DNA from: Promethearchaeota archaeon
Lineage (GTDB): Archaea; Asgardarchaeota; Lokiarchaeia; Sigyniarchaeales; SOKP01
Direction of reading: 5' to 3'
Length of the DNA stretch: 64,000 nt
Assembly: GCA_016840085.1 (NCBI GenBank)
Contig: JAEOTA010000018.1
Span: 62,001 to 126,000 of the forward strand
Below are positions 15,280 through 15,352 of the stretch, one piece after another; positions within the stretch are counted from its first letter, which is position 1; every line of letters starts with the position of its first letter. The notes beneath the pieces were generated by a model, which was given only the letters and a program-made list of their open reading frames with translations, was not told where the DNA came from and did not search any database. The translations under genes were made by a program, and so were the position numbers.

Positions 15280-15352
15280 AATCCCAAAACCTTTGCTAGG
15301 CAGTCTTCGAACGTCTCATTTTTTTACATGCGAATCATTCTTATTTGGGATT
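15280..15352 (-). promoter_or_regulatory. Candidate SECIS element in the 3'UTR of the redoxin selenoprotein gene
   Basis: Transcript-sense AATCCCAAA-TAAGA-ATGA-TTCGCATGT-AAAAAAATGAG-ACGTTCGAA-GA-...-TTTGGGATT: 9-bp outer stem, ATGA/GA quartet-like core, 9-position helix with one mismatch, A-rich apical loop. Confidence 0.65.

What the first reader, a model, noticed from the sequence alone, without database searches (positions are those of the whole stretch)
15280..15352. Eukaryote-like SECIS candidate right after the redoxin stop codon
Minus-strand transcript: AATCCCAAA-UAAGA-AUGA-UUCGCAUGU-AAAAAAAUGAG-ACGUUCGAA-GA-CUGCCUAGCAAAGGU-UUUGGGAUU. It has a perfect 9-bp outer stem, AUGA 5' and GA 3' directly flanking a 9-position helix (8 pairs, one C/U mismatch), and an apical loop opening with As. 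That is the layout of the eukaryotic SECIS (UGA/GA non-Watson-Crick quartet, AA in the apical loop), rather than the classical methanogen type. Published work described eukaryote-like SECIS elements in Lokiarchaeota, and this is an independent instance next to a TGA-containing ORF. The 5' outer arm overlaps the last codons.
Basis: partly seen in the sequence, partly recalled or inferred. Interest (0 to 1): 0.85.

Follow-up and report, generated by a model that had tools for sequence, protein, structure and literature searches.

The report
Lokiarchaeal selenocysteine-insertion RNA with three-way junction
The tail of this Lokiarchaeal gene carries an RNA signal that very probably tells the ribosome to read the stop codon UGA as selenocysteine; it resembles the eukaryotic signal, has an extra conserved helix, and led us to several apparently undescribed small selenoprotein genes.

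Summary
Confirmed. The minus-strand element at 15280-15352 is a SECIS of a Lokiarchaeal peroxiredoxin-like selenoprotein (in-frame UGA at 15709-15707, FFRGNW-U-SHC). The same core (AUGA, 9-nt helix, A-rich loop of 11-12 nt, helix, GA) follows nearly all homologues of the gene in its family, with strong covariation. A covariance model built only from other genera finds the window element at 74.6 bits. A model built only from redoxin elements also finds elements behind other selenoprotein genes (VhuD/FrhD, VhuU), gives 126 matches in 19 genomes of the genus, and 1 match in 39 genomes of another Asgard class. The genome encodes SepSecS, an aSelB-type EFSec and two UGA-containing SelDs.

Two things go beyond the papers I could read. 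(1) The 3' side of the supposed internal loop is a conserved, covarying third helix, making a three-way junction with k-junction topology. (2) Scanning with the model reveals several apparently unreported UGA-containing families, mostly tiny membrane proteins. Caveats: this gene copy has an apparent 1-nt N-terminal deletion, its own lowest-energy fold differs in the upper stem, and function is inferred.

The parts
15273..15354 (-). whole SECIS element (R1/R2 covariance-model match)
   Evidence: 83.8 bits with R1; 74.6 bits, E = 2e-20, only hit, with leave-genus-out model R2
15344..15352 (-). stem I (outer), 5' arm AAUCCCAAA, = last three codons of the ORF
   Evidence: pair probabilities 0.68-1.0; covaries
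15335..15338 (-). 5' side of the SECIS core, AUGA
   Evidence: 98-100% conserved in 61 Prx elements and 97% in 100 other elements
15326..15334 (-). stem II (upper), 5' arm UUCGCAUGU
   Evidence: nine pairs, all with double changes, about 90% paired across elements
15315..15325 (-). apical loop AAAAAAAUGAG; three A's near its 5' end and its last G are 91-100% conserved
15306..15314 (-). stem II, 3' arm ACGUUCGAA
15303..15305 (-). 3' side of the core, GA, plus the following C
   Evidence: G 98%, A 100%, C 100% in Prx elements
15289..15301 (-). stem III: GCCU-AGCAA-AGGU hairpin, third helix of the junction
   Evidence: pair probability 0.83-0.92; 88% paired in 61 Prx elements, 90% with double changes at all four pairs in 100 non-Prx elements
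15280..15288 (-). stem I, 3' arm UUUGGGAUU
15341..15808 (-). Prx-like (AhpC/TSA) selenoprotein ORF read with TGA = Sec; TTG is only the mechanical start
   Evidence: Pfam AhpC-TSA 7.7e-21; 44 of 46 Asgard genomes with a homologue have TGA inside the match
15707..15709 (-). in-frame TGA (Sec codon) of the UxxC motif, about 370 nt upstream of the core
15812..15860 (-). N-terminal region with an apparent 1-nt deletion relative to orthologues; the orthologous start region MSKMNAEEPPRPK is out of frame

Best explanation
It is the selenocysteine insertion sequence of a Lokiarchaeal Prx-like selenoprotein mRNA. The RNA directly after (and overlapping) the end of the coding region folds into three helices around one junction: stem I (outer), stem II (nine positions capped by an A-rich loop and based on AUGA/GA), and a short stem III between the GA and stem I. 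AUGA/GA would form tandem sheared G.A pairs, a kink-turn; with stem III inserted in the non-bulged strand the secondary structure is that of a k-junction. The element would recruit EFSec with Sec-tRNASec, through an unidentified adaptor because no SBP2 is known in archaea, so that the ribosome reads the UGA about 370 nt upstream as selenocysteine. Shown here: sequence, comparative structure, association with UGA-containing genes, presence of SepSecS, EFSec and SelD. Inferred: the kink-turn/k-junction three-dimensional form, the adaptor step, and actual Sec insertion.
For: Orthologous 3' ends keep the core and architecture. Covariation: 75-85% of cells paired against 28-53% when partners are slid, covariation score 0.45-0.66 against 0.23-0.25 in shuffles. 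A leave-genus-out model finds only this site in the window. A model from Prx elements alone finds, in the same genome, elements directly behind three VhuD/FrhD genes and VhuU, all with in-frame TGA. 126 matches in 19 genomes of the genus against 1 in 39 genomes of another Asgard class. Machinery in the same genome: SepSecS 487 bits, EFSec whose best solved relative is archaeal SelB 4ac9 at 293 bits against 118 for the best EF-Tu, two selD genes each with one TGA. Published class of the same kind: PMC11227280.
Against: The lowest-energy fold of this one copy uses another register in stem II. The ORF has an apparent 1-nt deletion near its N-terminus, so this copy may be misassembled or broken. 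tRNASec was not found, although Lokiarchaeal tRNASec is reported to carry a T-arm intron that would hide it (PMC9499178). No experiment. Alignments A2 and A3 were fitted to the model and lean towards it. Only two Cys homologues, both distant, were available as SECIS-negative controls.
Confidence: 0.93

Rival explanations
1. A plain eukaryote-type SECIS: two helices separated by an internal loop, with the 3' side of that loop unstructured, as drawn by the first reader and in the published general Asgard model.
For: Published description of an internal loop without conserved nucleotides and of a single apical loop in Lokiarchaeota (PMC11227280; PMC9499178). One stem III pair (60:72) is unpaired in 17 of 61 Prx elements.
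Against: Stem III is 88-90% paired; all four of its pairs show double changes in the 100 non-Prx elements, including changes such as GCUCU/AGAGC (L054) and UUC..GGGAA (L070). Most tested elements fold it unprompted.
Confidence: 0.05
2. An ordinary transcription-terminator or mRNA-stability hairpin at a gene end that only looks like a SECIS.
For: A 9-bp outer stem is followed by a T-rich stretch; the trailing positions of the Prx elements are T-rich.
Against: Unpaired positions (AUGA, GA-C, loop AAA and final G) are the most conserved ones; the element is tied to TGA-containing genes and almost absent from the other Asgard class.
Confidence: 0.02
3. A true SECIS, but attached to a broken gene in this organism: the single-base deletion is real and the copy no longer makes the protein.
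For: Orthologues continue in frame through EEPPRPKG..KAP; the window reads PRPKD then a stop, with the rest in another frame.
Against: The remaining frame is open to the end, strongly conserved (mostly 68-81% identity to congeneric orthologues) and its SECIS is intact; isolated indels are common in draft metagenome assemblies.
Confidence: 0.12

Closest known systems
Asgard eSECIS-like element, type I (Mariotti et al. 2016; Huang et al. 2024, PMC11227280)
   Same: AUGA_GA core, upper stem of 7-15 bp, A-rich apical loop of 8-20 nt, directly behind Prx-like, FrhD/VhuD and FrhA/VhuU selenoprotein genes of Lokiarchaeia; no SBP2
   Different: A conserved third helix takes the place of the 3' side of the internal loop; not mentioned in PMC11227280. 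Mariotti 2016 was not readable here.
Eukaryotic SECIS (types I/II)
   Same: 3'UTR position, AUGA/GA quartet, unpaired A's at the start of the apical loop
   Different: Upper stem 9 positions instead of about 12-14 (eukaryotic figure from memory); extra helix III; overlaps the coding end; no match to any Rfam SECIS family even at a lax threshold
k-junction (TPP riboswitch, PMC4005666)
   Same: Secondary-structure topology: loop on the 5' strand, G.A/A.G at the base of the non-canonical helix, third helix in the non-bulged strand
   Different: Unrelated RNA, no ligand known; three-dimensional form not tested
SelL / SelL-related redox proteins (for the protein)
   Same: Thioredoxin-fold Prx-like protein with UxxC or, in paralogues, UxxU (the SelL motif, from memory); best NCBIfam match NF040769 SelL_rel_redox
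   Different: 51.6 bits, below the family cut-off of 120, so not a member by that model

Membership tests
Asgard eSECIS-like element, type I | core GA_[G/A]A (mostly AUGA_GA) | tested here: met
   AUGA at 15338-15335, GA at 15305-15304; near-invariant in orthologues
Asgard eSECIS-like element, type I | upper stem 7-15 bp with at most 2 mismatches, apical loop 8-20 nt, no ministem | tested here: met
   9 positions with 1 mismatch, loop 11 nt
Asgard eSECIS-like element, type I | near the 3' end of a UGA-containing selenoprotein gene in a Sec-decoding organism | tested here: met
   core starts 2 nt after the stop codon; SepSecS, EFSec and UGA-containing SelD present; tRNASec not found
Eukaryotic SECIS | match to a curated eukaryotic SECIS covariance model | tested here: not met
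   no Rfam SECIS match at gathering or lax thresholds
Eukaryotic SECIS | two helices separated by an internal loop only | tested here: not met
   third covarying helix
Eukaryotic SECIS | bound by SBP2 | not testable with these tools
   literature reports no SBP2 in Asgard archaea (PMC11227280)
Methanogen (euryarchaeal) SECIS | GAA_A bulge between short stems | not tested
   no dedicated scan; the observed conserved features are AUGA_GA, not GAA_A
k-junction | three-way junction with tandem G.A pairs at the base of one helix and the third helix in the non-bulged strand | tested here: met
   secondary-structure level only
k-junction | kinked three-dimensional fold | not testable with these tools
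   needs crystallography, SAXS or FRET
Prx-like selenoprotein | AhpC/TSA fold with Sec in a UxxC (or UxxU) motif | tested here: met

The most novel reading that the evidence does not exclude
Lokiarchaeia use a distinct class of SECIS, a three-way (k-)junction, across much of their selenoproteome, and this selenoproteome is larger than reported: besides the known families it includes several undescribed UGA-encoded families, above all tiny membrane proteins (one-helix 'GGUxC' and acidic 'DDDCxxU' types, a two-helix 'AUG' type) and a 300-residue Asgard protein apparently now annotated as starting just after its UGA.
Probability: 0.7. Interest if true: 0.78.

Novelty: new variant of a known kind. 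Interest (0 to 1): 0.6.

Why it matters
Asgard SECIS elements are the best candidates for the ancestor of the eukaryotic selenocysteine system, and how archaea recognise them without SBP2 is an open question. A defined three-way junction with a kink-turn-like core gives a concrete RNA to test against L7Ae, L30e and EFSec. The covariance model is sensitive and specific enough to enumerate much of the selenoproteome of these genomes, which homology searches with known families cannot do, and it already points to new selenoprotein families that gene callers truncate at UGA.

Tried and rejected
Rfam scans of the window and of eight loci: no SECIS match; the best lax hit is a chance C/D-box model. 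Rfam tRNA-Sec and a hand-written anticodon/T-loop pattern for tRNASec in the genome: only tRNA-Gly, tRNA-Ser or nothing. A single-sequence fold as proof: rejected, since z is only -1.8 and the register is wrong. A SECIS behind the two SelD genes or behind the second own TGA redoxin (L002) with R1: none found, so R1 misses some elements, possibly the published type II form for SelD. Cys homologues of the new membrane families: none among the 13 sequences read; full-length copies show W where the TGA would be and the shorter ones stop there. dN/dS after the TGA: mostly below 1 but noisy, supportive only. Pfam for the new families: nothing significant. The Mariotti 2016 paper is not held.

Full report
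Setting. The window is bases 62001-126000 of contig 4 of a 4.68-Mb Asgard metagenome-assembled genome. Close relatives of the redoxin are in named Lokiarchaeota/Lokiarchaeia genomes at 77-81% identity. The redoxin ORF on the minus strand (15341-15808) is open only if the TGA at 15709-15707 is read through; it is an AhpC/TSA protein with the motif FFRGNW-U-SHC.

Observation. A core descriptor (AUGA, at least 8 of 9 pairs, loop of 10-13 nt starting AA, GA) occurs once in the 64 kb, at this site, against 0.12 per dinucleotide shuffle; with an outer stem of 9 bp or more it occurred in none of 100 shuffles.

Orthologues. A search of 232 Asgard genomes found homologues in 46, and 44 of these have TGA inside the match; the two without TGA are distant homologues, one of which (L067) reads CxxC at the site. 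The 3' ends in the window's family show the same element with little length variation: AUGA, 9 nt, 11-12 nt loop, 9 nt, GA (rarely AA), C, a small hairpin, outer stem. On 59 elements, 75.3% of cells pair, against 29-49% when partners are slid by 1-3 columns; all nine stem II pairs have double changes. RNAalifold, given no structure, predicts stem II alone, with double changes at all eight pairs it predicts. Outer-stem covariation is visible by eye as well, for example UCCC/GGGA against GUUUUUAUAA/UUAUAAAAAC in L058.

Independence tests. Model R2, built from 29 elements of other genera only, finds the window element as its only hit, 74.6 bits, E = 2e-20. Model R1, built from Prx elements only, finds six further elements in the same genome. 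Four lie directly behind known selenoprotein genes with in-frame TGA: three VhuD/FrhD and one VhuU (one VhuD and the VhuU were checked against NCBIfam, FlpD). Over 19 genomes of the genus R1 gives 126 matches at E up to 0.01, against 1 match in 39 genomes of another Asgard class. R1 found nothing at the two distant TGA-free homologues, nor at the TGA-containing homologues of another family of the order (L060-L065), whose elements, if any, must differ.

Third helix. The fitted alignment of 100 non-Prx elements, none of them used for training, has 84.6% paired cells against 40-53% slid; stem III (four pairs) is 90.4% paired with double changes at every pair. In 61 Prx elements it is 88% paired. 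Both alignments were fitted to the model and lean towards it, but the slid and shuffled controls and unprompted folds of most tested elements agree. The published Asgard model speaks of an internal loop without highly conserved nucleotides, and a review states that the Lokiarchaeal element has a single apical loop. The topology equals that of the k-junction: loop on the 5' strand, G.A/A.G pairs at the base of one helix, third helix in the non-bulged strand. That it really kinks is inference.

Machinery. SepSecS is present over cut-off (487 bits). The EFSec candidate on the same contig, about 5.5 kb away, scores just under the selB cut-off (235.6 against 242.25), but its best solved relatives are archaeal SelB (293 bits) and eEFSec (186), well above EF-Tu (118). 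Two adjacent selD genes each carry one TGA. tRNASec was not found; Lokiarchaeal tRNASec is reported to have a 31-nt intron in the T-arm, which would defeat these searches. PSTK was not searched. The genome has two L7Ae-family proteins, which is what ribosomal L7Ae and L30e alone would give (general knowledge), so no extra SBP2-like candidate stood out. Recognition therefore remains open; L30 of M. maripaludis is reported not to bind the archaeal SECIS.

Cautions. The window copy alone prefers another stem II register by 2.2 kcal/mol; nearest-neighbour energies ignore the non-canonical quartet and any protein. The N-terminal region has an apparent one-base deletion relative to the orthologues compared. 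MAG contamination is 7.6% by the tool's estimate.

Beyond the finding. Classifying the ORFs that end just before the 100 non-Prx elements gave VhuD/FrhD, HdrA, VhuU and SelD, but also about 37 places with TGA-containing ORFs that I could not assign to a known selenoprotein family. (A) One-helix proteins, mostly of 72-86 residues, with GGUAC-like motifs, 14 loci including one in this genome (L069). (B) One-helix proteins with an acidic run and CxxU or CxU (DDCFU), six loci including L072 in this genome. (C) Two-helix proteins of about 60-85 residues with Sec between the helices, often AUG, about ten loci. (D) A roughly 300-residue protein with DWHDVLTTU near its N-terminus, seven loci. Membrane helices were judged by eye, not predicted. 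For A, the database copies I read either end at the TGA position or show W there (read-through under another table) with the downstream frame conserved. For D, the 120 best of 391 database homologues are almost all 285-287 residues long, which is the length counted from the Met seven residues after the UGA; I inferred the shared start from lengths and did not align them. dN/dS after the TGA is mostly below 1 but noisy. None of the six tested representatives has a significant Pfam match. Huang et al. list seven families, found by homology to known ones, and a 2026 review counts 11 archaeal families, so these look unreported, within the papers I could search.

Verdict. It belongs to a published class; the third helix makes it a variant of that class, and the model it yields is the more interesting product.

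Noticed in passing
L069:1259-1582 (G000:C82:24200-24523), L076, L077, L093, L105, L116, L119, L120, L122, L129, L132, L133, L157, L161: Apparently unreported selenoprotein family A: small one-helix membrane proteins (mostly 72-86 residues) with in-frame TGA in a GGUAC-like motif, each followed by an R1 SECIS. The SelK/SelS GGUG resemblance is only a lead from memory.
   Followed up: partly
L072 (G000:C85:105694), L085, L096, L106, L115, L131: Family B: one-helix protein with an acidic run and CxxU/CxU; in several members the open frame runs into or through the SECIS.
   Followed up: partly
L117 (two), L118, L123 (three in tandem), L145, L151, L152, L156: Family C: two-helix proteins of about 60-85 residues with Sec between the helices (often AUG); L156 has three in-frame TGAs close together.
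   Followed up: partly
L149, L154, L155, L158, L165, L169, L172: Family D: Asgard protein of about 300 residues with conserved DWHDVLTTU (or close) near the N-terminus and an R1 SECIS behind it; database copies (about 286 aa) appear to be annotated from the Met just after the UGA.
   Followed up: partly
L005:2063-2705, L006:2135-2666, L010:2054-2849, L038, L049, L050, L051, L052, L053, L055, L056: Prx-like paralogues with UxxU (two Sec codons) served by one SECIS, in several species in tandem with the UxxC gene; UxxU is reminiscent of SelL.
   Followed up: partly
window 15812-15860, minus strand: Apparent 1-nt deletion in the N-terminal coding region of the redoxin relative to orthologues.
   Followed up: partly
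L002:1404-1896 (G000:C5:16277-16666): A second own-genome TGA-containing redoxin (LFRDIHUPYC) with no R1 SECIS behind it.
   Followed up: partly
L062, 3' of the ORF: Prx-like Sec gene of another family whose 3'UTR folds into a similar three-way junction with an A-rich loop but without AUGA/GA.
   Followed up: no
window 16064-16597 and 13546-15204, minus strand: Neighbours are a Ras-family GTPase and a Sec23/Sec24-like protein (Pfam Sec23_trunk and Sec23_BS).
   Followed up: no
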